DNA of 64,000 bases from Amyelois transitella (lineage: Eukaryota; Arthropoda; Insecta; Lepidoptera; Pyralidae): positions 7,963,501 to 8,027,500 of the forward strand of contig NC_083510.1 in NCBI RefSeq assembly GCF_032362555.1, written 5' to 3'. The notes beneath the pieces were generated by a model. That model was not told the origin of the DNA and searched no databases. It saw nothing but the letters and a program-made list of their open reading frames with translations. The translations under genes and the position numbers were made by a program. Within the stretch, counting starts at the first letter, position 1. Each line of letters begins with the position of its first letter. Shown in pieces: positions 39,707-63,357 of the stretch.

Positions 39707-42700
39707 ATGGCAGTTCCCGCAGAAGTTAAAATAATAGCAAATTCATTGGTTTATCAGTATCTACAGATTGTAGATAAATCATTAGCAGAACAGTTTCAAA
39801 AAAAGACTAAAGCGGTAAGTTGTTCCATGCTCTAACCTCTTCCACGTGTGGTACTGATGGTTTTACCACACGTGTTCTATAGAATGAATGTCTTGCTATA
39901 ATAACTTGTGTATTTATTCTTCGTATAAATATAAATACTTAATTGATTAAAAAATATTAACTTCAATTTAAATTTAGGTACTGCTAGGAACTATATTCCT
40001 GAAGTAGATACCTAGGTATAATGTTTAAAGTCATTTCTTTTAAAGTAGTAGCACTGAACTAATGTGGTATTATATTTACTTATCAAATGCTTCATTGCTT
40101 ATTTAAGCATCTATTATTTTTAAACATGCTGCCTTCACATTATAGCATAGCTGACGTCAACACCTTCAATTCACACACATCTTAATAAATTGAAGTAATC
40201 ATTATTAGAAAAACAAGTAATTTATGATATTTTTTTCAGAAACCTCCAGCAAAGAATCTGTCTGCATTGATTGACATTATATCTCAATACACGAAAAATA
40301 AGGTGCCGCAGAAAGCTGCTGACAGGTATCTATATATAGATATTTCCTTTTTTCTTTTATTAGGTAAACTGAAAAAACTTTGCATATATTTCAAAATACA
40401 TAAAGCATGTTTCTTTGATCATCATTGGTATATTTTGTACTAAATGATGCACTTAAAATATATTAGCTTGTTGTTGCCTGTGGTTTCGCTCAGGCATATT
40501 GTTGTTTAATGCAAACCTATGAAAAAAGTATTTTTCCTGAATGGAAGGTATAGAGTACTTGTGTCCTTTTCAGCACTCTTAATGGCTTTAGGTGTGTTTT
40601 AGATTGCTTCCACTTGTGAATTCATACATACAATGACACATTCTGTGCTCGTCTTGGGATTTTATCCTATATGTGTTCACTCCACTGTCTTAAGACCAAA
40701 GACGCCCAATTTACAATATTAATGATTGAATCAAATAGCTTTACCCAAGGTTTAGGCACATTGTCATTCATTGTCATAAATAAAAGTAAAGGACAAAATT
40801 TATCTTTGTATTCTGGAACTTGCAAGTAAAGAACCTTAAACATGGGAAGAACATTTACTCATACCTAATTTTATTTTAGTTCAGATGACTCATCTAGTGA
40901 AGAAGAGGCCCCTAAAAAAGCCATCCCACAAGTAAATGGCAAGGCTCCAGCAAAGAAAACAGCGAACTCCGATTCAGACAGCTCATCTGAAGATGAGAAG
41001 CCACAGGTATGCATTACAAATATATGTACTATAAATAGTATCTAAATAAAAAGTGAATGACTGACTGACATATCAATGCACAGCCAAAACAAACTTGAAA
41101 TATGGCTATTGGTTCTTTATTTGGTCTAGGGATACACTAAGAAAGGATTATTAAAACCCCTATTAAAACATACCTCTTTCTTACTTACTACATCGTTCCA
41201 CTTGCTATGATTCGCTTCTTGCTCTGTTTAGGGTACTCTTGAAATTACCTTTCATTAAAACATTCCCAAATACATTATGAAACATTTGACTTTCCTTTAG
41301 GCTTTCCCTTGTTTGTTTGCCTTCCCTTTTCAATATTTCTATTGACATCCCCTTGTATAAGCATTTAAACATTTCTATTTTTATTCTAGTCAGTCTGGTC
41401 AATCTTTTATATAGCACCTCTACATGTATCTTCTTTTATCATAATTTTTTTATTTCTTGACAATATTTTATTCTAAGAATATTTTATTTCATTGGACAGG
41501 CTAAACAAGTTAAACCCCAAGCCAAACCCCAGGTGGTAGTAAAAAAAGCAGAGTCATCTGATGACAGTGACAGTAGTGATGATGCTGCTACCACTCAACC
41601 TAAAAAGCAGCCAGTTAAGCCACAGCCTATTTCAAAACCAACTCCTGCTAAAAAGCAATCATCTTCAGATGACAGTGACAGTGATGAGGAACCAAAGAAA
41701 CCGGCACAGGTCAAAACACCAGTCAAACCAGCAGCTGCACCAGCCAAATCTGCACAAAAAAAACAAGATTCATCTGATAGTGATGATAGCAGTGAAGATG
41801 AAAAGCCAAAACTCATGGCCCCTGTTAAGCCGCAAGTGGCAAATGCCAAGGCTTCAGTAAAGAAACAAGCATCTTCATCAGACAGTGATGATAGTGAAGA
41901 TGAGAAGCCAAAAACTCAAACAAAAGCACCAGTCAAGCCTCCAGTTAAACCAGCCGCCAAGAAGCAAGAATCGTCATCTGATGATGACAGCAGTGATGAT
42001 GAACCTCCTGCAAAGAAGGCACATCCTGCAAAACCTCAAACACCAGCCAAACCTCAAACACCTGCTAAACCGCAACTAGTAAAAAAACCTGCAGATTCTT
42101 CAGATGACAGTGATGACAGTAGTGAAGATGAGAAACCTAAAAAAGCTGTCCCCAAGCCTGAGGCTACACCTGCTAAACCGGCTGCTAAAGCTGTTGTAAA
42201 AAAAGATTCATCAGATGATAGTGATGACAGCAGTGAAGATGAAAAGCCAAAAGCTGCTACAAAGACTCCAGTAAAACCACAAGCTAAACCAGCTGCTAAA
42301 GCTCCCGTGAAGAAAGATTCGTCTGATGATAGTGATGATAGTAGTGAAGATGAGAAACCTAAGAAAGTAGTTCAAAAACCTGTGGCTACACCTGCTAAGC
42401 CAGCTGCTAAAGCCGTTGTAAAGAAAGATTCATCAGACGACAGTGACGATAGTAGTGAAAATGAAAAGCCAAAAGCTCAAGTAAAGACTCCAGTAAAACA
42501 ACAAGCTAAACCAGCTGCTAAAAAAGATTCCTCGTCTGAAGACAGTGATGACAGCAGTGAAGATGAGAAGCCAAAACAAACAAAAGCTACCCCAGCTAAA
42601 GTTACACCTAAAAAACCTCAAGCAGATTCATCATCGGATGATGACAGTGAAGAAGAAAAGCCTAAACAAAAAACACCTGTCGCTAAGAAACCTGTACAAA

Positions 42701-44678
42701 ATGAATCATCAGATGATAGTGAGGATGATGATGGACCCCCAGCAAAGACTCCTAAAAAAGAAAATCAAGAACCACAAACTCAGGTATGTATATGTCAAAT
42801 TCATTTAATACACTTAATTGTTTAGTATACAGAATATTTTGAGTATATTTTAATTTTAAAAGTTCCTATAAAATCAATATTAAATAATTAGTAATAAAGA
42901 GAAAAGGTTAGAAATTTTTGTAACAAATAAACCCAAAAACCTACTAGACTGATTTCCAAGAAATTTGGCACAGATATAAAAAAGACCTACAGGGAGTAAC
43001 ATAGACTAGATTATTTCTGGAATTACGGGAGCTAACCCCCGCGGAAATTTGGTAACTAATTTCAAATAATAAACATTTCAGATGAATGGTTTCCAGTCCG
43101 GAAAGAAACGAAAAGCTTCTGGAGGAGATGACGGTCCAGCCAAGAAACCGTACAATAATTTCGTAAAGGTAATGACCTAACAGTTTTGTATAATTATCTT
43201 GCCCATTTTACAATTATGTAAAGTTATTTTTCAAGATAAATTGTAAAGAAGTAGCTAACCGAAATTAAACTATTTTTAGGGCACAATTAACTCTTCAACT
43301 CCCAATATGAAAGACAAAGAATCTTCAAGTAAGCCAGTGCCGTTTAGGCGAGTGGTGGACGAGAAAATAGAAGTGGATCCTAGGCTTAAGGATAATTCCT
43401 TTGATGCAAAGGTAAATGCCCTAACTATTGAGAAGCCAAGACAACTCTATGAAATTCGAAAAAACAAAATTGAAGTTGATTATATTTGGTGGCTCAGTAT
43501 CGATTTCGGGCATTTACTTTTTTGTCATACATTTCATAGGGTTGTCTTGGTTATTTTAAATATAAGTTTTATCTCAAACAGGAGGGCGAAGGAGAAGAAG
43601 AAGATCGTCAGACTGGCGGCTTCCGTGGCCGTGGAAACGACAGGGGGCGAGGCGGTTTTAGGGGAGGGCGCGGTTTTAATGATAGAGGCGGTCGTGGTGG
43701 TTTCAATGACAGGGGAGGCCGAGGCGGCCGCGGGGGCTTCGATAGAGGCGGGCGGGGCTTCGGCCGCGGAGGAGACAGGGGAGGGCGTGGTCGGGGGGGC
43801 GACAGGGGCGGCCGTGGCTGGGGGGGAAACCGGGGGGGGCGCGGTGACCGCAAATCGTGGGGCGGCGAGCGAGGGGGATTCAATAAAGGAGGTTTCCAAG
43901 AAAGGAAAAGCTTTGAGGGAGGCGATAATTCTCAAAACAAGAAAATAACATTTGATTAAGAGGTAATATTTAGATATTTCTGAATCTATATTGTTTCACC
44001 AATGAATTGGAGCATAGGGTTAGCCTTTGATCATGGATCCTGGATTGAGTAAGAATACCAATGCCCTCAATTAAAGGTGGGAAATGAGAGAGTGCTTATA
44101 AAAGTGAAAAGTGGCAGGTATAACAGCTTTTACTATGATTTTATTATATGATTTACATCATGTATTCTATGTGCCATGTGGTTCCCGGCACCAATACAAA
44201 AAAGAATAGGACCACTCCATCTCTTTTCCATGGATGTCGTAAAAGGCGACTAAGGGATAGGCTTACAAACTTGGGATTCTTTTTGAGGCGATAGGCTAGC
44301 AACCTGTCACTATTTTAATCTCAATTCTATCACTAAGCCGAATAGCTGAACGTGGCCATTCAGTCTTTTCAAGACTGTTGGCTCTGTCTACCCCGCAAAG
44401 GATATAGACGTGATTCTTGTAAGGATAAATTGGCAATTGTAAACGTTCATGGTGTATTTAATTGGTTATTTTACAAATTTACCAAATAATTGGGAAGTTT
44501 ATCAGTGCATGTTCTTTTGCAGAGTGGAGCTCGTGGTTCTTGGGGTGAGCGTGCCAACATTGACTTAAAGCATACGAGGGGCAAGTCTTTTAAGCATGAA
44601 AAGACGAAGAAGAAACGAGGCTCCTACCGCGGCGGCGCCATCGATACCGGTGTTCATTCCATCAAATTTGAGGATTAA
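39707..44678 (+). CDS. Nopp140: Nopp140 / NOLC1, nucleolar and coiled-body phosphoprotein (conserved-tail isoform)
   Basis: Exons: 39707-39814, 40240-40325, 40880-41006, 41500-42783, 43082-43168, 43280-43411 and 44523-44678 (TAA), 659 residues. The N-terminus ([15 protein letters not shown], then [16 protein letters not shown]) is the LisH-like domain. The centre alternates acidic serine clusters ([15 protein letters not shown]), typical casein kinase 2 sites, with Lys/Pro/Ala-rich basic blocks, the Nopp140 hallmark. The last two exons encode the SRP40-type C-terminus ([19 protein letters not shown], then [19 protein letters not shown]). The protein chaperones small nucleolar and Cajal-body RNPs. 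An alternative last exon (43582-43959) gives an RGG-tailed form. Confidence 0.96.
42139..42573 (+). repeat. Higher-order repeat inside Nopp140 (222-bp period)
   Basis: The stretch encoding [20 protein letters not shown] followed by two acidic clusters (42139-42360) recurs as [20 protein letters not shown] followed by two clusters (42361-42573). The period is 74 codons, so a two-module block was duplicated in frame within the acidic/basic array. Confidence 0.8.
43582..43959 (+). CDS. Nopp140: Alternative terminal exon of Nopp140 (RGG isoform)
   Basis: The acceptor CAAACAG is followed in phase 0 by [18 protein letters not shown] and about 85 residues of RGG/FGRGG-type repeats, ending NKKITFD and TAA. 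Joined to the exon ending at 43411 it replaces the conserved SRP40 tail, giving 733 residues. Drosophila Nopp140 is known to make two forms, one with the conserved tail and one with an RGG tail; this exon is the matching structure. RGG domains bind RNA and are often arginine-methylated. A SINE-like copy lies between the two alternative ends. Confidence 0.88.
   Translation, partial: EGEGEEEDRQTGGFRGRGNDRGRGGFRGGRGFNDRGGRGGFNDRGGRGGRGGFDRGGRGFGRGGDRGGRGRGGDRGGRGWGGNRGGRGDRKSWGGERGGFNKGGFQERKSFEGGDNSQNKKITFD
44171..44414 (+). mobile_element. SINE-like retroposon copy in the Nopp140 terminal intron
   Basis: It begins near CCATGTGGTTCCCGGCACC and ends at GATATAGACGTGATT, matching the other copies. 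No convincing target duplication is seen. It separates the two alternative 3' ends of Nopp140. Confidence 0.85.
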
Positions 44679-46863: not shown

Positions 46864-48649
46864 CAAGTGCTTATTTTATGTTTTTAGTAGGTAGTAAACA
46901 TTGTAAAAAGTAGTCTTTCTGTACATACATTATTTATTATATTTAATTATTAAATATATATATTTTTTACAATAAAATTTATTTATTTGTATCATGATAA
47001 TCATGCAATTATGAATGGTTTATCATAATTATTTCTTGTTTTGTATTGTATTTTACCATTCACTATGATATATTATTTTAAAAAAATCAATAATACATTG
47101 AAACTCATGTTTCGAAAGAAAAGATTCGGCTTTTATGTTACTCACATCAAAAATAGTAGATCATGAGGTGTTTAAAAATAATGCACTTTTGGTAAAAGCT
47201 ATTTGCACTTGATGTTGTTGTCTAGTTCTATAGTATTCTTGTATAGAGTTGGCAGTCAAATGGTTAAGGAGCCTAAAAAAAGTGATGCACAGGTTCTCTT
47301 ACCTCCTGTTAGGGTTACCAGGTCGCCAAATCTAATAGCCAGACAAGCCAGTTTGGCCAAACATTTGGCTAAAAATCCAGACACCCTATAGTATTGAGGA
47401 TTTTGTCTTAGTATTAATAGGTACAAGCTAGACAAAAAAATTGTATGTAAAATCTATTTGCGAAATGTAAGAAGCTAGACACCGTTTATTTGGCCGGACA
47501 TGCAATCAAAAAGCCTAACTATGTCCAGCTTTATCCGGCTGCCTGTCAACGCTACCTCCTGTCATTCCACAGCAATGACTATCTGATGGTAAAGCAAAAT
47601 ATCGTTGAGTAAATCTGCACTCAGGTCAAACAGTTATTGCTTCATGTGAAAACCTGACTTGTTTCATCGAGTATTGTGGTCATAGGTAGGTACACTTTGA
47701 GGTTGCCAAATGACTTTTACTTAAATAATAAACTTGGGATTCTTCTTTAAGGCGATGGGCTAGCAACCTGTCAATATTTGAATCTCAATTTCATCATAAA
47801 GCCAAACAGCTTAATGTGGCCTCTCAGTCTTTTCAAGACTGTTGGCTCTGTCTACCCCGCAAGGGGCATAGACGTGATTATATGTATGTTACACAAAATG
47901 TATGAGTATGTACATAGTCTTTCTTTGTACACTGGTGACACTTTTTATACATAAATTCCCACGGGAGCAAAGCCTTGGGGCGCAACTAGTGTTAGTAGTA
48001 GCTAGTGTGTTCTATTACAATAAAACAATAGTACAAAATAAAATATTTTATTTAAGCTGACATAATTTTTATGTGCTGTATGCTATGACATAAAATACTT
48101 TAAATAAATAGGTCTTAAGATTATTTAAAATTCTTCTGCTGTAAATATAAAATGATGCAAAACCTGCAATCATCTAAATTAATGTTAAATTTCATTTTAT
48201 GATCATATTGCATAATGTGAATAATGTAATAGTACTTTTTATTATTTCTAGATGTATCATTAATTTTTATTTACTTTTATTATTTATTTATATTGGTGCA
48301 CCAAATGGACCCCCTAAAGTACCGATAATAATTAACGTTTAAAACGACTGTTAATGTTAGTAACAGTTTACTGCAACATTCCGGAAGCTGTGTACAAAGC
48401 CTTAAATTTTACATTAGAGGAAACTGTGAGATATATCACAAATATCGCTAAAAAGCACCATTGTTAAAAATATTAAAAAATACAAAAAAGGCAAAAGAAG
48501 ATTGTTGTCCATAACTATTTACATCTTGAGTTAATGTATTATATTCATTAGATTACTTAAATCATCCGAATATCGAAATTAACACGTCATTTTGATATAA
48601 TTTGAATTAATGACTAGTAATATGTGTTTCTATAATTTTTTTTTTGCAT
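46864..48649. other. Spacer between convergent genes
   Basis: It contains the polyadenylation signal of the small gene (46971), a 62-codon frame at 47203-47391 (MVKEPKKSDAQVLLPPVRV within it) that I cannot assign, a partial SINE-like copy (47730-47890), and AT-rich sequence that probably includes the Zasp52 3' UTR on the minus strand. Confidence 0.45.
47730..47890 (+). mobile_element. 5'-truncated SINE-like copy
   Basis: It starts within the unit at AACTTGGGATTC and runs to the TAGACGTGATT end and an ATGT tail. No target duplication is recognised. Confidence 0.85.
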
Positions 48650-49759
48650 TTATTTTTTATTACCAAGACAATTCTGCTTAATATACTGATAAATAAGATT
48701 ATATACAATTAATATAAAACATAAAATTGCTGCATGATAATGTATAGGCATATTATAAATAGCGCTAAAGATCCCTCCGCGTACACAATTTGATTTTGAT
48801 CTCTTATAGTTAATAAGATCATCAGATCTGATCTGAGAAGAATCAGATCTGCTTTTTATATCTTCTTGTTTTTCATATTCTTTTACTTGTGCTTGCGATA
48901 TGGGTTCCTTTTTATCAACAACATTTGTTTCTGTTTCTTGGTAACTACCAATATTACTGCTTGTACTTGATTTAATGTAATATGTCTTCTCTTCATATGT
49001 CTCGTTTATTCCCGTTTCCTTACTTTCCAACACTGTTTCTCCAATTCTTTGCATATGGTCAGGAGTGATGTGGCCCTTACTTTCGCGTATAGCACAGACA
49101 TCTAGACTATCTTGTAAGTAACTGTCTATTTTGGTTAATTGTTCCGAAACAAGTAGGTTTGCCAGTGGGCTATGAGCTCTTGCGTAGGGTTCGCTAACCG
49201 TTAAATTTTGTTCGCTCGCGCTACTGCCTATATCATTTTCAATATGTTTTTCCTTGCACAAAGAACTTACAATTTTATAGCTTTGTAAATCCTCATAGTT
49301 GTCCTTTATATACTCTATGGGTGATTTCGGTTGGTTAACTGTAAATTGCGAAGGAGTCAGTAGGCGAGGAGGATCCAGCTCTTGAGGTATCGGAGTGAAT
49401 TTTACTTTGATGACGTCTTCGTTAGTTATAGTCTCCGTTTTAACTATGTCGTCCACATAGTCTTTATTTCCATGTAAACCAGTACTCTCGTACACGCTAG
49501 GCGAGTCGGTGACATCGTGGCGTATAGAGCTGTGGATGCGATCGACGGTGACTTTGCTGAGCAATTTGCCGTCTGTGCTTCTTATGTCGGAAAACAATCC
49601 TCCATCGAAGTGGAGGGGTGTTTCCAACTTTCTTGTTCGCTGCGGCGATGGTGTTTGTGGTATTGTAGGCGTAGCCGGTGACGGAGAAACTGGGCGAAAA
49701 GTCGTAGCAGAGTAAACAGTGTCGGAGTTGTACATTAATTGCGGAGTATTAGCGAGCAT
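48650..49759 (-). CDS. Long second reading frame in the last Zasp52 exon, with tail anchor
   Basis: A 369-codon frame opens at an ATG (49759) that overlaps the LIM4 stop codon in another frame (11-nt overlap, ATGCTCGCTAA). The same frame is open back through the LIM4-coding part to the splice acceptor at 49826. The protein is Ser/Thr/Pro-rich at first (FRPVSPSPATPTIPQTPSPQ), acidic in the middle, and ends with a hydrophobic segment (AAILCFILIVYNLIYQYI, about residues 343-360) and a short basic tail, as in tail-anchored membrane proteins. Both giant exons (ending AG, phase 2) can splice to 49826 in this frame by skipping LIM2-4. The ATG context is weak, so use as a downstream cistron is less likely. 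I do not recognise a homologue. Confidence 0.65.
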   Translation of the reverse strand: MLANTPQLMYNSDTVYSATTFRPVSPSPATPTIPQTPSPQRTRKLETPLHFDGGLFSDIRSTDGKLLSKVTVDRIHSSIRHDVTDSPSVYESTGLHGNKDYVDDIVKTETITNEDVIKVKFTPIPQELDPPRLLTPSQFTVNQPKSPIEYIKDNYEDLQSYKIVSSLCKEKHIENDIGSSASEQNLTVSEPYARAHSPLANLLVSEQLTKIDSYLQDSLDVCAIRESKGHITPDHMQRIGETVLESKETGINETYEEKTYYIKSSTSSNIGSYQETETNVVDKKEPISQAQVKEYEKQEDIKSRSDSSQIRSDDLINYKRSKSNCVRGGIFSAIYNMPIHYHAAILCFILIVYNLIYQYIKQNCLGNKK

Positions 49760-52700
49760 GAATTTTGCAGAATGGTCTGCCTCCCTTGGCGAAGAAACTC
49801 TGTCCTTCGAGGTTCTTTTTGCACACCTGAAAATGAAATTCAATAAATCACGTATAGCATACCTCAAGAAAATTATTTGAAATTATATATATATAGGTCC
49901 GTAACAGATAATATATTTTGAATTGAACATGCCTTAGTTTTATCGACATCTACTTAAAAAACATTAACGAATCACATAAGAAAGATACACTACATACTTC
50001 TACCAAACAAGTACATATTATAGCAAAATACATCTTATGTATTTTTAAACTTTTTAAACATAAAATAGCCAAAACAGTTCTACTCAAATAATATCAGTCA
50101 AACTCATAACGGATAGCAGAAGCATTTGAAAGCATTTTAAAAAGTAAAATGTAAGATAATCTATCTTCCTGAACTTTGGGAAGTTTATGTATTGAAACAT
50201 AAATTACTTGTATATAACATACATAATAAAGTAATTATATGTAAAAAAACTGTATATATATTTACATTGGGGCACACTTCTGGAGGATACACACAGTAAT
50301 GTTTATGTTAATAAGGAAAAACACAGTTGTGGCAACGTATGACGAGCGTTTATATGTAATTTTGCAAAATCGAATAAATGTAGGTATGTATTTTAAGGAG
50401 AATGTTTCTTTTACATCATGATACTTAATATCAAAGATATTTAAGCTCCTGCTGATCAAGCAATGCCCAATGGTTGTAATCGCTAAAATGGAAACATTAT
50501 TTAGCATTTTTGTTATTTAGAAATGATTCGGAAAAATTATTAAGATTTAAGAGTTTTTTGTATAGCAAGTTTTGTGTTTGGTTATAGGGTATAAAACATA
50601 ATTACATATGTATAACGTTATAAGATCGACCAACATCGAGCTTAATGTTTTGACCATTTCACGACGGCAACAAAATGACATAGAATTTAAAATTGTTCTG
50701 TAAATTTTGTGTGACTGTCTGATATGTTGGAATTTAATAATTGCTCGTATCATACGCACCGTGCAGTTGAAGCACTGACTGTGGTAGTTATTGTTGAGCG
50801 CCTCGACCCACCTGTCGCCCGCCTCCACTGGGAATCCGCAGGCGAAACATTTGGTCGTGAACAACTCATTCCAATCTGAAATTGTTTTAAATAATATTCA
50901 CTAATATTTTAAACAGTGCTAGGTAATAATTAAGAAGTACTACAAGAAGTACAAGAATTATAAACCTTTAATTAATTAATTTCTCGTGACTGACATGTTA
51001 GTTGATGTTGTTCCACTCACCTGCTTCACAATATGGCAAGCCATCTTCTAAGAAGAACGGGTTGTTACCGAACAGCTTTCCACAATATACGCAATTGAAA
51101 CATTCTGGATGGAAATGCTTGCCGATAGCATTTAAGCAATCCTAAAAAAAAATAAGTTTAGGACCTTAGACATATATCTAAACAAAATTGAAATATGAGA
51201 GATATAAAAGAAATAAATATAATCCAACGTTCTAAAGTTAAGGTACATATGTATAAAAACATTATTAATATAAGCTACTTACGCCTTTAATCTTAGCGTG
51301 GCATTTATCGCAAGCGGGTGCAATATATTGTTCAAAACAGTATTCGCAGTACAACTGGCCATTCTCCTCAACAAAACCGATGTCCTGGAGTGGACGTCTA
51401 CACGTCGCATTCACACAAATAAAGTGTTCTGGACACCAGATGCGGCCCAAAGCTGTGATGAATGGTCCCCTGTTCATAAAATAACTGATAAGTGCTCTGC
51501 CCATGTATACCTATTACCATATTATTTCATAATAATGATTTTAAAATATTAATATGTTAAGTAAAAAACGAACAAAACAACACTCATGCTCTCTACAACA
51601 TGCTTTTTGTTGGACTTACATATCTTTCTCAGAAATTCAATAATTGCTGACACGTCATGATAAATAATGTCTTGTTCATATAAATGGTGAAGTTACCTTT
51701 CTATTGCTTTATCACATTTGTGACATACTGCATACAGTCCGTCAGTGGTGTCTGTGGATACCATGGTGCTAAGCGGCCGAGCAATTATGTGGGAATCTCT
51801 TCTACCGTCGTCATTTCTATAATTGGTCTTTTTCTGTCTACGTTTTACGACTATCTCAGATTCGGCATCGTCAATAACATCATGCTGTTGTTTTTGCAAG
51901 TCTAACTCTTCATTGTGACTTGTATTATTCGATAATATTCCTTCATTTGGGTATTTTGTATTATTCTCATTTGGTATTTTAAAGGTATACAAAGTGTTGT
52001 CGTACAAATTTTTTAGATGATTCGAATTCTTAGTATTATCACCTTCTTGACTAATGACACTATTCTTTCCATTTTCGGTAGATATTTTAGCGGTTCCCAA
52101 TGTGCTCGAATTCGCATTTTTTCTATTGATATTATTTTTATCATGTACCTTATTATTGCTTTCGATGTTAGAAGAATGGTTTGTTGCATCCAGTTTTTCG
52201 AACAATTTTCTCTTGTTCAATGTATTTGAGAAATTTTCATGTTTAACATCAGACCTGTCTTGGTTATGTGGAATGTTCATACCATTCACAAGTGATGTTT
52301 TCTCAGTGTCTTTTTTTCGTAGAGTATTAAGATAAATACTGTCCACTTTATCTTTTTCCGAGAGGTCTTCATTGCTTGAACATGAACCACTGCTGTTACT
52401 GATTTTTCCAATGTTTACCATACCAGCGTTGACATTTTTATTTATAATATTGTTAAATTGATTTTTCGATTGACTATTTGATACTTGAAACTTTGGTGTT
52501 CCTTGGGAATTAAATGTTGGTATCGGTGACTTTGGTATTGGTGGTGGTACTGGGACATCACCATTTGGAAAGGTACAATTATTTTGAATGCCTGATTGTT
52601 TATTAAAAGCGTTTAGCGAATTCAATATCGGTATAGGAGATTTTGGTATGGGTGGGGGAACTGGAACATCACCATTTGACAAATTACAATTAGCTTGATT

Positions 52701-61700: not shown

Positions 61701-63357
61701 CCTGTCACTATTTTAATCTCAATTATATCTTAAAGCCAAAAAGCTGAACGTTTTCAAGACTGTTGGCTTTGTTTACCCCGCAAGGGATATAGACGTGATT
61801 AATGTATGTAAAATATGTAAAGTTGCACTAGAGATGCGAACGCCTTTAACTCCCTCCCCTGGTCTTGCATTGTGGAGGCACTCCGATACCATGGGGTGCC
61901 GACCTACCTGCGTCGGGTCATCCAGGACTACCTCTCAGAGAGATGGATAATCTTCCCTGACCGAAACGGTTGGACGAAGAGTTCAATGACGCGCGGTGTT
62001 CCACAGGGTTCTGTCTTAGGACCGCTCCTGTGGAACATCGGTTACGATTGGGTGCTGCGGACGGTCACTCTGCCCTGGGTGGAGGTCGTCTGCTACGCGG
62101 ACGACACACTCGTGACCGCCCGCGGTCGTGGGGGACGACCTTTCCCTGCCGGCTGTCGTGAGACAGATGGTCGACAGCGAGAGGTCGTGGACAGCAGTGC
62201 AGACCTTTGCGGAGAGCGTCATGCTCCGCAAAGAGGCGGCGGAAAGGGTGAGAGAGGACACGTCCGACCTCCCCATACGCCGCCGGCGCACTGGGCGCAG
62301 GAGGCGGGCATACGCCCTGCACCTGCTGCCCCCACAATAAGGGCCGGTCGGGCGGCGGAAACGGGATTCCGCTGCCTGGCGAAACGGCCCTGGGTCGAAG
62401 GCGCGCTTGTGCCAGGCGCGCCCTCCCCTAGCGGGTAGAATTGAAGGCCGACGGGTCACCCCGCTGGCCGCTCCGTGGAGAGCGGCCGAGCCGAGGCCGC
62501 CGTGGAAGCGGCCGCCGCGTCAGGAGTACGAGCGAGGGCAGCTCACACTCCTGGCAACGAAGCGGTAGGCGATGGCACCGTGTGGTTTTAGTGGGTTCAA
62601 GCCCCACATAACCCGTCCGACTTCCCGTAGCCGGCCGGGTAGACGAAGGTCTTTCCACACGTTAAAAAAAAAAAAAAAAAAAAAAAAGAGATGCGAATGG
62701 TCCTATTCTAAAGTTCCGGTGATATGTTGCTATTTATGGCAGAGGTTAAAAACTCTTCAATGCAGCTTTTTAAGTTCAGGAAAGCTCTGCACTGGTGGTT
62801 GTACTATCATTTTTTCTATTAATAATACTGTGATTGTACTGAAAAACAATTACCTACCTAATAAATAATGGCGATGAGTCAGTTGACAACAACGTTAACT
62901 ATTGTCATGAAACGCGTATAGTAGGTACTTAAGTACCTATTTCATGCCAAGTCATATTCCATTTTTATTCGTTAAACATACGACCTTTAGCTACTACAAT
63001 TTTATTTAATCTCATGAAGTGTTCTTCAGAAATTCGTTCTAAGTTTCTATTTTGGATTTATTCAGTCTACCAAACAAACACAGTAACAGTATACTGTACA
63101 CCAGATGTATTAACAATATTTTTTTCATGGATTCTTAAGAACACAAGATCACCATCCTTAGAAACGGGAATGCGTCCAAAAATATATTTGGTCCAAAATA
63201 TTCACCGTTGCACGGTGAGCTCCAGGTTGCCCCCGGCGGCGCGGATGGCGTCCTGCGCGTCCTGGTGGCGCAACGTGTACACGTCGGTGTTGTTGACGCG
63301 AATCAGCGCGTCGCCTGCTTGCAAACCAGCGCGCTCCGCCGCGCTGCCGCCGTTGAC
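49749..63357 (-). CDS. Zasp52: Zasp52, PDZ-ZM-LIM protein of the muscle Z-disc (5' end outside window)
   Basis: Minus-strand exons: 63206-63357, 61199-61373, 60875-61005, 60300-60391, 59727-59871 (or 59113-59458), 58167-58355, 57985-58078, 57398-57584, 53291-56492 (or 51697-53047), 51283-51469, 51021-51141, 50760-50875 and 49749-49826 (TAA). The default path gives 1622 residues. Order: C-terminal PDZ half (VNGGSAAERAGLQAGDAL), RPSVTPTGSLP linker, ZM motif (SIVNKQYNTPVNMYSDKTIA), GVNFKKNEK block, LIM1 (GVFVRIKDKNLHVECFKC), a long disordered linker, then LIM2 (GPFITALGRIWCPEHF), LIM3 and LIM4, ending GGRPFCKIHAR. These match Drosophila Zasp52 closely. The protein binds alpha-actinin and organises Z-discs and integrin attachment sites. 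The first PDZ exon is not in the window. Confidence 0.94.
51697..53047 (-). CDS. Zasp52: Zasp52 alternative giant exon B (450 codons, own LIM2 half)
   Basis: The acceptor AACAG is followed by TT (phase 1 entry) and an open frame DVQNTTNAHKPDFKS to CHKCDKAIER, with donor GTAACT, leaving AG (phase 2). Entry and exit phases equal those of giant exon A, and the CHKC supplies the first zinc ligands of LIM2 instead of CASC. The exon contains a duplicated block: IQSMADKIHDTVV/IQSIGDKIKETIF, and twice NGDVPVPPPIPKSPIP, a Pro-rich stretch suited to SH3 or EVH1-type partners (inference). It is Asn/Ser/Lys-rich and probably disordered. Confidence 0.85.
53291..56492 (-). CDS. Zasp52: Zasp52 giant exon A (disordered linker, own LIM2 half)
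   Basis: This 3.2-kb exon enters in phase 1 (acceptor AATAG, then CT) and leaves AG at donor GTGATT. It encodes about 1067 mostly disordered residues rich in Gln, Ser, Thr and Pro, starting QSVKSIVWPPPNPPADEPPK. A motif of the form DALTTAPxRPYSPLP occurs three times (around 55575, 55185 and 55105). QVFPPP occurs at two places, and PRSRSPAQGPPP marks an SH3-type Pro-rich stretch. The C-terminus PLCASCNGNIR is the first half of LIM2. GTGATT is a less common donor, but phase and domain continuity support it. Confidence 0.9.
57372..57584 (-). CDS. Zasp52: Zasp52 exon with possible read-through terminal form
   Basis: The exon PSSNFSGPKPFGSSIGSAYS to HAPFAP normally ends at donor GTAAGA (57397), in phase 1 for the giant exons. 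If the donor is not used, the frame continues only SKRVTFAV and stops at 57372-57374, giving a short LIM1-only protein. Such PDZ-ZM-LIM1 short forms are known in the family; use here is inference. Confidence 0.4.
   Translation of the reverse strand, partial: PSSNFSGPKPFGSSIGSAYSPSLSPRSAPMSPARPVAAPVAPAAVPHSVPLSTQSAHAPFAPSKRVTFAV
57641..57898 (-). mobile_element. SINE-like retroposon, full length with 14-bp target duplication
   Basis: It runs from an ACATACAT tail, AGTCACGTCTATATCCC, to GGGAACCACACGGCAC on the plus strand. TATAACATTATTAT is repeated perfectly at 57627-57640 and 57899-57912. It lies in a Zasp52 intron. Confidence 0.93.
58445..58611 (-). mobile_element. 5'-truncated SINE-like copy with 13-bp target duplication
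   Basis: The 3' part of the family unit only, flanked by perfect TAGATATTTACAT repeats (58432-58444 and 58612-58624). The cut at the element's 5' end with an intact duplication is what incomplete target-primed reverse transcription leaves. Confidence 0.9.
59113..59458 (-). CDS. Zasp52: Zasp52 alternative exon B for the first half of LIM1
   Basis: Entered in phase 1 at CGGCAG (AG then CCG), it reads PSHFYSRASVARAGTPCS, a Ser/Arg/Pro-rich stretch, and ends DTPYCSDCNRYIV at donor GTAAGA in phase 2. CSDC supplies the first zinc ligands of LIM1. It is GC-rich, unlike its neighbourhood. The polypyrimidine tract before the acceptor is poor, so the precise 5' boundary is less certain than the rest. 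Confidence 0.75.
59727..59871 (-). CDS. Zasp52: Zasp52 alternative exon A for the first half of LIM1
   Basis: Acceptor ATATAG, phase 1 entry, then EVTQSAASPVSGLRH and GGLPPGQNICEECERLIT, with donor GTAAGT in phase 2. CEEC is the first zinc pair and joins GVFVRIKDKNLHVEC to complete the first finger with CxxC-x16-H spacing. Phases equal those of exon B at 59113-59458. Confidence 0.85.
61564..61818 (+). mobile_element. SINE-like retroposon with 10-bp target duplication
   Basis: It runs from GGGCCGTGTGGTTCCCGGC to a GTGATTAATGTATGT tail. AAAGTTGCAC is repeated at 61554-61563 and 61819-61828. A non-LTR element is inserted 12 bp further on. Confidence 0.9.
61841..62687 (+). mobile_element. 5'-truncated, damaged R1/jockey-type non-LTR retrotransposon
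   Basis: The reverse-transcriptase frame shows GVPQGSVLGPLLWN and the YADD active-site box (CYADDTLV). The frame breaks just after YADD, and a short distance later a stretch like the C-terminal end of such ORF2 proteins appears (MLRKEAAERVRE, then RRRRTGRRRRAY), implying an internal deletion. GC content is far above the host sequence. A 24-nt poly(A) ends the element, and GAGATGCGAA flanks it (61831-61840 and 62688-62697; 11 bp counting the adjoining A). It lies in a Zasp52 intron. It cannot be autonomous. Confidence 0.9.
62688..63205 (-). other. Zasp52 intron segment
   Basis: AT-rich intron between the retroelement and the PDZ exon. Nothing further is recognised. Confidence 0.5.

What the first reader, a model, noticed from the sequence alone, without database searches (positions are those of the whole stretch)
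48650..49826. Dual-frame last exon of Zasp52: LIM4 end in one frame, a 369-codon tail-anchored protein in another
Seen: after the acceptor at 49826, one frame gives the 25 residues that end LIM4 and stops at 49749. A second frame is open across the same 78 nt and on for 369 codons, ending in a hydrophobic anchor. A frame that long in AT-rich DNA is very unlikely by chance. Both giant exons end in AG/phase 2, exactly what is needed to enter the second frame if LIM2-4 exons are skipped. Inference: Zasp52 could make a form where LIM2-4 are exchanged for a membrane anchor, tying the PDZ-ZM-LIM1 module to a membrane such as the sarcoplasmic reticulum or T-tubules. Alternatives are a second cistron (ATG overlapping the stop) or +1 frameshifting at CGC-TAA-T. 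I know of no described Zasp isoform like this.
Basis: partly seen in the sequence, partly recalled or inferred. Interest (0 to 1): 0.88.

Follow-up and report, generated by a model that had tools for sequence, protein, structure and literature searches.

The report
Membrane-tailed splice form of moth Zasp52
In moths and butterflies the muscle Z-disc gene Zasp52 can apparently use an earlier cut point inside its LIM4 exon, which shifts the reading frame of the last exon and swaps the end of the protein for a long, conserved tail with a probable membrane anchor.

Summary
Terminal exon D (49826→) ends LIM4 in one frame (stop at 49749). Its +1 frame is open for 391 codons to 48650; 0 of 3000 shuffles match that. 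The frame encodes a conserved protein: 84 homologue records, all named ones lepidopteran, with a conserved C-terminal transmembrane helix.

Of 14 annotated Zasp models that carry the tail, four, from four species (Plodia "isoform X7", Diatraea, Hyposmocoma "isoform X4", Colias), use one junction: an alternative 5' splice site inside LIM4 exon C (GACAG|GTGGGT, exon end 50812 here). It removes 52 nt (1 mod 3) and joins the ordinary acceptor at 49826 in the tail frame. LIM1-3 stay; LIM4 is cut after its first CxxC. The other ten models join differently.

In nine sequences, 16 of 17 degenerate codons between the two donors are synonymously invariant, against 11 of 45 around them (P=6e-7), suggesting conserved splicing control. 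An own-AUG cistron is unlikely: at least 16 of 35 informative homologues lack a Met there.

Likely role: a membrane-tethered Zasp52 form. The junction rests on gene models, not reads; the membrane is inferred. My searches found no description in print.

The parts
51283..51469 (-). exon A (187 nt): end of LIM2, start of LIM3; phase 2 in, phase 0 out
   Evidence: protein order matches annotated Zasp isoforms
51021..51141 (-). exon B (121 nt): most of LIM3; phase 0 in, phase 1 out
50760..50875 (-). exon C, long form (116 nt): start of LIM4, normal donor ACG|GTGCGT (7 of 9 consensus positions)
   Evidence: contiguous C-D reading in lgn homologues P0005, P0009, P0013, P0037, P0040, P0046, P0054
50812..50875 (-). 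exon C, short form (64 nt): ends at alternative donor CAG|GTGGGT (8 of 9 consensus positions), phase 2
   Evidence: same junction (EAGDR|CAKR or CARK) in P0071, P0072, P0073, P0080
50760..50811 (-). 52-nt segment between the two donors: coding for LIM4 in the normal form, intronic in the tail form; synonymous sites nearly frozen
   Evidence: 16 of 17 degenerate codons invariant in 9 sequences (the first of the 17, Arg22, straddles the donor)
49749..49826 (-). dual-coded start of exon D: 25 last residues of LIM4 plus stop in frame 0; tail-isoform linker in frame +1
48650..49825 (-). tail frame of exon D, from the acceptor to TAA (391 codons)
48689..48745 (-). predicted transmembrane tail anchor IHYHAAILCFILIVYNLIY, followed by 12 residues QYIKQNCLGNKK

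Best explanation
Exon D of lepidopteran Zasp52 is a two-frame terminal exon selected by a pair of competing 5' splice sites in exon C. With the distal donor (50760) the protein ends with a complete LIM4. With the proximal donor (50812) 52 nt are removed, the frame moves to +1 at the same acceptor, and the protein continues as ...LIM1-LIM2-LIM3-CFACGFPVEAGDR-CAKRTSKDR...-disordered tail-transmembrane helix. Shown: the tail frame is conserved protein-coding sequence; the join is present in annotated isoforms of four species; the segment between donors is under strong synonymous constraint. Inferred: the choice is regulated (RNA-binding protein not known), the C-terminal helix is inserted post-translationally as a tail anchor, and the form tethers the PDZ-ZM-LIM module to a membrane (SR/ER or outer mitochondrial membrane) while lacking LIM4.
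For:: four of 14 long annotated proteins carrying the tail (P0071 Plodia Zasp52 isoform X7, P0072 Diatraea, P0073 Hyposmocoma Zasp isoform X4, P0080 Colias) join at exactly GDR|C, the position of a CAG|GTGGGT donor at 50812 in the window; translating C-short plus D in the window gives an open frame with the same layout as Plodia; between the donors 16 of 17 degenerate codons are invariant, against 8 of 20 upstream and 3 of 25 in the exon D overlap (Fisher 6.3e-7 against both together); tail conserved; 10 of the 23 invariant columns of a 26-sequence alignment lie in the last 32 residues; the window's normal C-terminus has 3 LIM matches; the tail-form piece has no LIM match; the Plodia isoform keeps PDZ, ZM (PF15936) and 3 LIM matches; high-confidence C-terminal helix.
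Against: The isoforms are gene models; I saw no read or cDNA crossing 50812/49826. None of the lgn contig proteins shows the short-form junction, while seven show the normal C-D junction. Ten of the 14 long models join the tail in other ways: Choristoneura P0076-79, P0082, P0083; Chilo P0074, P0075; Colias P0081; Iphiclides P0084. Several genomes record the tail as a separate protein without LIM domains (Helicoverpa LOC126055982, Papilio 'Zonadhesin', Danaus, Euphydryas, Plutella). The +1 peptide inside the 78-nt overlap is only weakly conserved. No stable RNA hairpin was found at the donors in the window (z 0.76). Proteins longer than about 1913 residues were not searched.
Confidence: 0.82

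Rival explanations
1. LIM2-4 exons are skipped: a giant exon (phase 2) is joined straight to exon D. (The rivals do not exclude one another or the main reading; odds are for each as the chief route.)
For: Phases fit: both giant exons end in AG.
Against: 0 of 14 tail-bearing Zasp models show an NIR|CA or IER|CA join (0 of 84 records, most of which do not reach so far upstream). It does not explain the frozen synonymous sites next to the internal donor.
Confidence: 0.05
2. Skipping of exon B alone (121 nt, 1 mod 3) puts exons C and D into the tail frame.
For: The frame is open through C and D in the window and in seven lgn sequences.
Against: None of the 14 long models shows an A-C join; the single match to IKGIG among 84 records (P0053) lies inside the tail, not at exon A. 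It would cut LIM3 and translate the between-donor segment in frame +1.
Confidence: 0.04
3. The tail is a second cistron or separate overlapping gene starting at an AUG near the LIM4 stop.
For: Several genomes record it as its own protein starting M-YNSDTVY; the window has ATG at 49759 overlapping the stop; seven lgn contigs carry the tail downstream of a normal C-D junction.
Against: Of 35 homologues with residues upstream of YNSDTVY, 15 have Met before it (four of these are records of one species) and 20 have Ile. In 16 of the 20 no Met lies between the LIM4 stop and the conserved LETPLHxD/E block; P0071 and P0073 have one, P0033 and P0043 begin with a letter M that may be one.
Confidence: 0.08
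4. Plus-one ribosomal frameshifting at the LIM4 stop (CGC-TAA/TAG) fuses complete LIM4 to the tail.
For: From frame +1 residues the Arg codon before the stop is CGC in 7 of 9 sequences and, read the same way from the residues listed, in 33 of 35 homologues (CGT in 2). The frames overlap. The odds were raised slightly for this recount.
Against: The stop codon (TAA or TAG) and the next base vary (inferred from R, S, K or N at that place); a splice junction seen in four species already gives a tail product.
Confidence: 0.05
5. An internal intron within exon D joins near-complete LIM4 (..GGRPF) to the tail, as in Chilo P0074/P0075 and Colias P0081 models.
For: Two species have such models.
Against: The window has no GT after GGRPF in the 78-nt overlap; this join would discard the conserved YNSDTVYSTTTFRP stretch; Colias also has the GDR|C model (P0080).
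Confidence: 0.04

Closest known systems
Drosophila Zasp52 splice forms (growing and blocking isoforms; PMC6910826, 12 passages read)
   Same: Same gene family; isoforms differ in how many LIM domains a PDZ-ZM protein carries, with effect on Z-disc size.
   Different: The passages describe forms with several, one or no LIM domain; 'transmembrane' occurs 0 times in the main text. Here LIM4 is exchanged for a membrane tail by a frame switch.
SLMAP tail anchors TA1/TA2 (PMC2712456, abstract read)
   Same: A muscle protein whose alternative splicing decides which C-terminal tail anchor it has and so which membrane it goes to.
   Different: SLMAP chooses between two anchors, the moth gene between an anchor and a LIM domain, by changing the frame of one exon. 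No sequence comparison with SLMAP was run.
Vertebrate ALP/Enigma proteins (ZASP/Cypher, ENH; review PMC9751615, 12 passages read)
   Same: PDZ, ZM and C-terminal LIM domains; isoforms without LIM domains.
   Different: The review text holds 'transmembrane' 0 times; no anchored isoform appears in the passages read.
Dual-coding exons entered by alternative splicing (general class; recalled)
   Same: Two reading frames of the same exon are used by different mRNAs.
   Different: Overlap is only 78 nt; most of the tail frame lies in what is 3' UTR for the normal form.

Membership tests
Zasp52 / ALP-Enigma family | PDZ domain at the N-terminus | tested here: met
   PF00595 at 7-85 of the Plodia tail isoform P0071; the window's own PDZ exon was not scanned
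Zasp52 / ALP-Enigma family | ZM motif (PF15936) | tested here: met
   153-218 of P0071; not scanned in the window
Zasp52 / ALP-Enigma family | C-terminal LIM domains | tested here: met
   3 LIM matches in the window's normal C-terminus and 3 in the tail isoform P0071 (read from its sequence as LIM1-3); no LIM match in the window's tail-form piece
Tail-anchored membrane proteins | single transmembrane helix within the last ~30-40 residues, nothing long behind it | tested here: met
   KD 1.75 over residues 339-357 of 369, 12 residues after it; AlphaFold2 helix 339-364
Tail-anchored membrane proteins | post-translational insertion with N-terminus in the cytosol | not testable with these tools
   needs cell biology
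Alternative 5' splice site isoform pair | two usable donors sharing one acceptor, both seen in products | tested here: met
   normal junction in 7 lgn proteins; short-form junction in 4 annotated proteins; gene models, no reads seen
Programmed +1 frameshifting | conserved shift site at the frame switch | tested here: inconclusive
   Arg codon inferred CGC in 33 of 35 homologues, but stop TAA or TAG and following base variable

The most novel reading that the evidence does not exclude
An order-wide, regulated frame switch makes a membrane-tethered Zasp52 in Lepidoptera. The tail frame arose in the former 3' UTR of the gene, and the proximal donor is held in check by an RNA element that freezes the 52 nt between the two donors. 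The resulting protein docks Z-discs or integrin sites to SR/ER or mitochondria in lepidopteran muscle, and by lacking LIM4 it also alters Zasp oligomer growth.
Probability: 0.3. Interest if true: 0.8.

Novelty: new variant of a known kind. Interest (0 to 1): 0.62.

Why it matters
Zasp/ALP-Enigma proteins are treated as soluble scaffold proteins of the Z-disc (family knowledge). A conserved lepidopteran form with a transmembrane tail would be a direct Z-disc-to-membrane link made by changing the frame of one exon, and so an easy system for asking how myofibrils are tied to SR or mitochondria. It also shows an annotation problem: the same tail is recorded as an uncharacterized protein, as "Zonadhesin" or as a hypothetical protein in different genomes.

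Tried and rejected
Own-genome search (copy number) did not complete. Pfam on the tail: 0 families. PDB sequences: one weak hit, E 0.38, taken as chance. A profile search for relatives outside Lepidoptera added only Pieris brassicae and Pararge; the search needs shared 5-residue words and most hits bear no species name, so absence elsewhere is weak evidence. RNA fold at the donors: nothing beyond shuffles (window only). Rfam over 48000-52000: nothing. The structure was not searched against fold libraries because mean pLDDT is 50.6. I first leaned towards +1 frameshifting (note), then exon-B skipping (while reading). Both were set aside when one search showed the GDR|C junction.

Limits of the synonymous test: nucleotides of other species were not available. 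Third bases were inferred from the residues of two frames, assuming the LIM4 sequence is the same in all; cells that did not fit (2 at codon 4, 1 each at 53, 58 and 60, 6 at 61) were set aside, and two sequences lack codons 1-2. One of the 17 codons (Leu27) is partly forced, because other Leu codons would close the frame and hide the sequence. The nine sequences are not phylogenetically independent, and the Fisher test treats codons as independent. They are all seven hits that reach exon C, plus P0084 and the window.

Full report
What is there. On the minus strand the window holds the 3' part of Zasp52. Exons A (51469-51283), B (51141-51021), C (50875-50760) and D (from 49826) encode the end of LIM2, LIM3 and LIM4. 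Exon D ends LIM4 with 25 residues and a stop at 49749. Its +1 frame is open from the acceptor to 48650. Dinucleotide shuffles of the exon give a mean longest open run of 71 codons, maximum 184, and 0 of 3000 reach 391.

The second frame is a real protein. A search with the 369-residue frame gave 68 homologues at E <= 0.01. A profile of 26 sequences (the window's and 25 of the hits) gave 70, two of them new. All named sources are Lepidoptera. They include Helicoverpa, Euphydryas, Plutella, Papilio, Danaus, Parnassius, Pieris, Arctia and Pararge, and Plodia, Diatraea, Hyposmocoma, Chilo, Choristoneura, Colias and Iphiclides. I looked up lineages for three of them (Plodia, Hyposmocoma, Plutella): Pyraloidea, Gelechioidea and Yponomeutoidea; the order of the others is recalled. 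Most records have no species name. The alignment of 26 has 23 invariant columns, 10 of them in the last 32 residues, with consensus AIYNMPIHYHAAILCFxLIVYNLIYQYIKQN. AlphaFold2 gives a confident helix at 339-364, less certain helices at 206-227 and 329-335 and one short strand, and no structure elsewhere (mean pLDDT 50.6). This looks like a long flexible tether with a tail anchor.

How the frame is entered. A search restricted to longer proteins (about 601-1913 residues by the tool's length rule), scored only on the tail region, found 14 annotated proteins that carry the tail on a Zasp body; the window's tail is closest to Plodia (73% identity). In four, from four species, the join is ...FTTKCFACGFPVEAGDR|CAKR (or CARK in Hyposmocoma).... 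In the window this is exactly what an internal donor in exon C would make: GCGGGCGAC AG|GTGGGT, exon end 50812. It matches the donor consensus at 8 of 9 positions, against 7 of 9 for the normal donor at 50760; the other four donors of the region score 6 to 9. Its use removes 52 nt (1 mod 3), leaves phase 2, and joins the usual acceptor at 49826 in the +1 frame. The window's own translation of this join is open throughout. The other ten models join the tail elsewhere, in ways that differ between and within species. They look like attempts of gene finders to connect an orphan frame, but I could not test this, and I did not see what evidence underlies the four either.

Independent evidence from codon choice. 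Seven lgn homologues run upstream through the normal C-D junction in the +1 frame. With P0084 and the window this gives nine sequences in which third bases of LIM4 codons can be inferred from the two frames. Between the two donors 16 of 17 degenerate codons are invariant. Upstream in exon C it is 8 of 20, and in the exon D overlap 3 of 25 (Fisher P 6.3e-7 against both together; 6.6e-4 against exon C upstream alone). The frozen codons include GCG, AAT and ACG beside C-ending ones, so a plain preference for one ending is an unlikely cause (inference; no codon-usage test was run). In the tail isoform this segment is intronic. The constraint is therefore best read as splicing control rather than as selection on a second peptide. 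No stable hairpin is seen there in the window.

Why not the rivals. Giant-exon-to-D joins and exon-B skipping fit the phases but occur in 0 of the 14 long models. Most of the 84 records are too short to tell. A separate cistron needs a start codon. Among 35 homologues with residues upstream of YNSDTVY, 15 have Met (four of them one species, Choristoneura) and 20 Ile at the preceding position. In 16 of those 20 there is no Met from just before the LIM4 stop to the conserved LETPLHxD/E block. The exceptions are P0071 and P0073, which have a Met, and P0033 and P0043, whose first letter may be one. Plus-one frameshifting at the stop has one point in its favour, an Arg codon inferred as CGC in 33 of 35 homologues, and against it a stop and next base that vary. 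These routes are not excluded in minor amounts.

What it probably does. The Plodia tail form keeps PDZ, ZM and three LIM domains (P0071), so it should still bind alpha-actinin and other Zasp molecules (family knowledge; PMC6910826 and PMC9751615, passages read). It has lost LIM4 and gained a probable membrane anchor. The anchor is moderately hydrophobic with basic residues after it. In SLMAP a less hydrophobic, alternatively spliced anchor goes to mitochondria as well as ER (PMC2712456, abstract), so a mitochondrial or ER/SR address is a fair guess and no more. In Drosophila the balance of isoforms rich or poor in LIM domains sets Z-disc size (PMC6910826, passages). Losing one LIM of four may matter less than the tether.

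Novelty. The isoform exists as an unremarked model in annotation databases (Plodia isoform X7, Hyposmocoma isoform X4). I searched the held open-access library for Zasp52+isoform+LIM (25 of 48 papers listed), Zasp+Lepidoptera+isoform (6 of 6), Zasp52+splicing+transmembrane (6 of 6), Zasp+tail-anchored (1) and Enigma+PDZ-LIM+transmembrane domain+isoform+splice variant (0). No listed title or start of an abstract describes it; the papers were not read in full, and subscription papers are mostly not held. PMC3303723 (passages) treats Zasp52 mutually exclusive exons, not this. I file it as a new variant of a known kind: an alternatively spliced Zasp whose variation is a frame switch to a membrane tail.

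Noticed in passing
window 41461-43960, + strand: A Nopp140-like gene: acidic/serine repeats ([15 protein letters not shown]), then [24 protein letters not shown], then a downstream stretch that reads as RGG-rich by eye. It recalls the RGG isoform of Drosophila Nopp140 (recalled, no search run).
   Followed up: partly
window 61821-62438, + strand: Reverse-transcriptase-like fragment (GVPQGSVLGPLLWNIGYDWVLR...YADDTLV), probably a non-LTR retroelement remnant within the Zasp52 region; named by eye.
   Followed up: no
window 51697 and 53291, - strand: Two giant exons each end with the start of a LIM2 (VCHKCDKAIER or CASCNGNIR) in the same phase, so LIM2 has two alternative first halves. Plodia isoform X7 uses the first kind, Diatraea the second.
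   Followed up: partly
records P0038, P0056, P0062: The tail is recorded as a separate protein in several genomes (Helicoverpa LOC126055982; 'Zonadhesin' in two Papilio species), apparently a mis-annotation of a Zasp52 exon.
   Followed up: partly
records P0007, P0011, P0026, P0038, P0056, P0062: By eye, the middle of the tail expands by internal repeats in some lineages (for example TPIDRPITPLNVPMTLFDRP in Papilio, SPLANLEAYEPIKRG in Helicoverpa).
   Followed up: no
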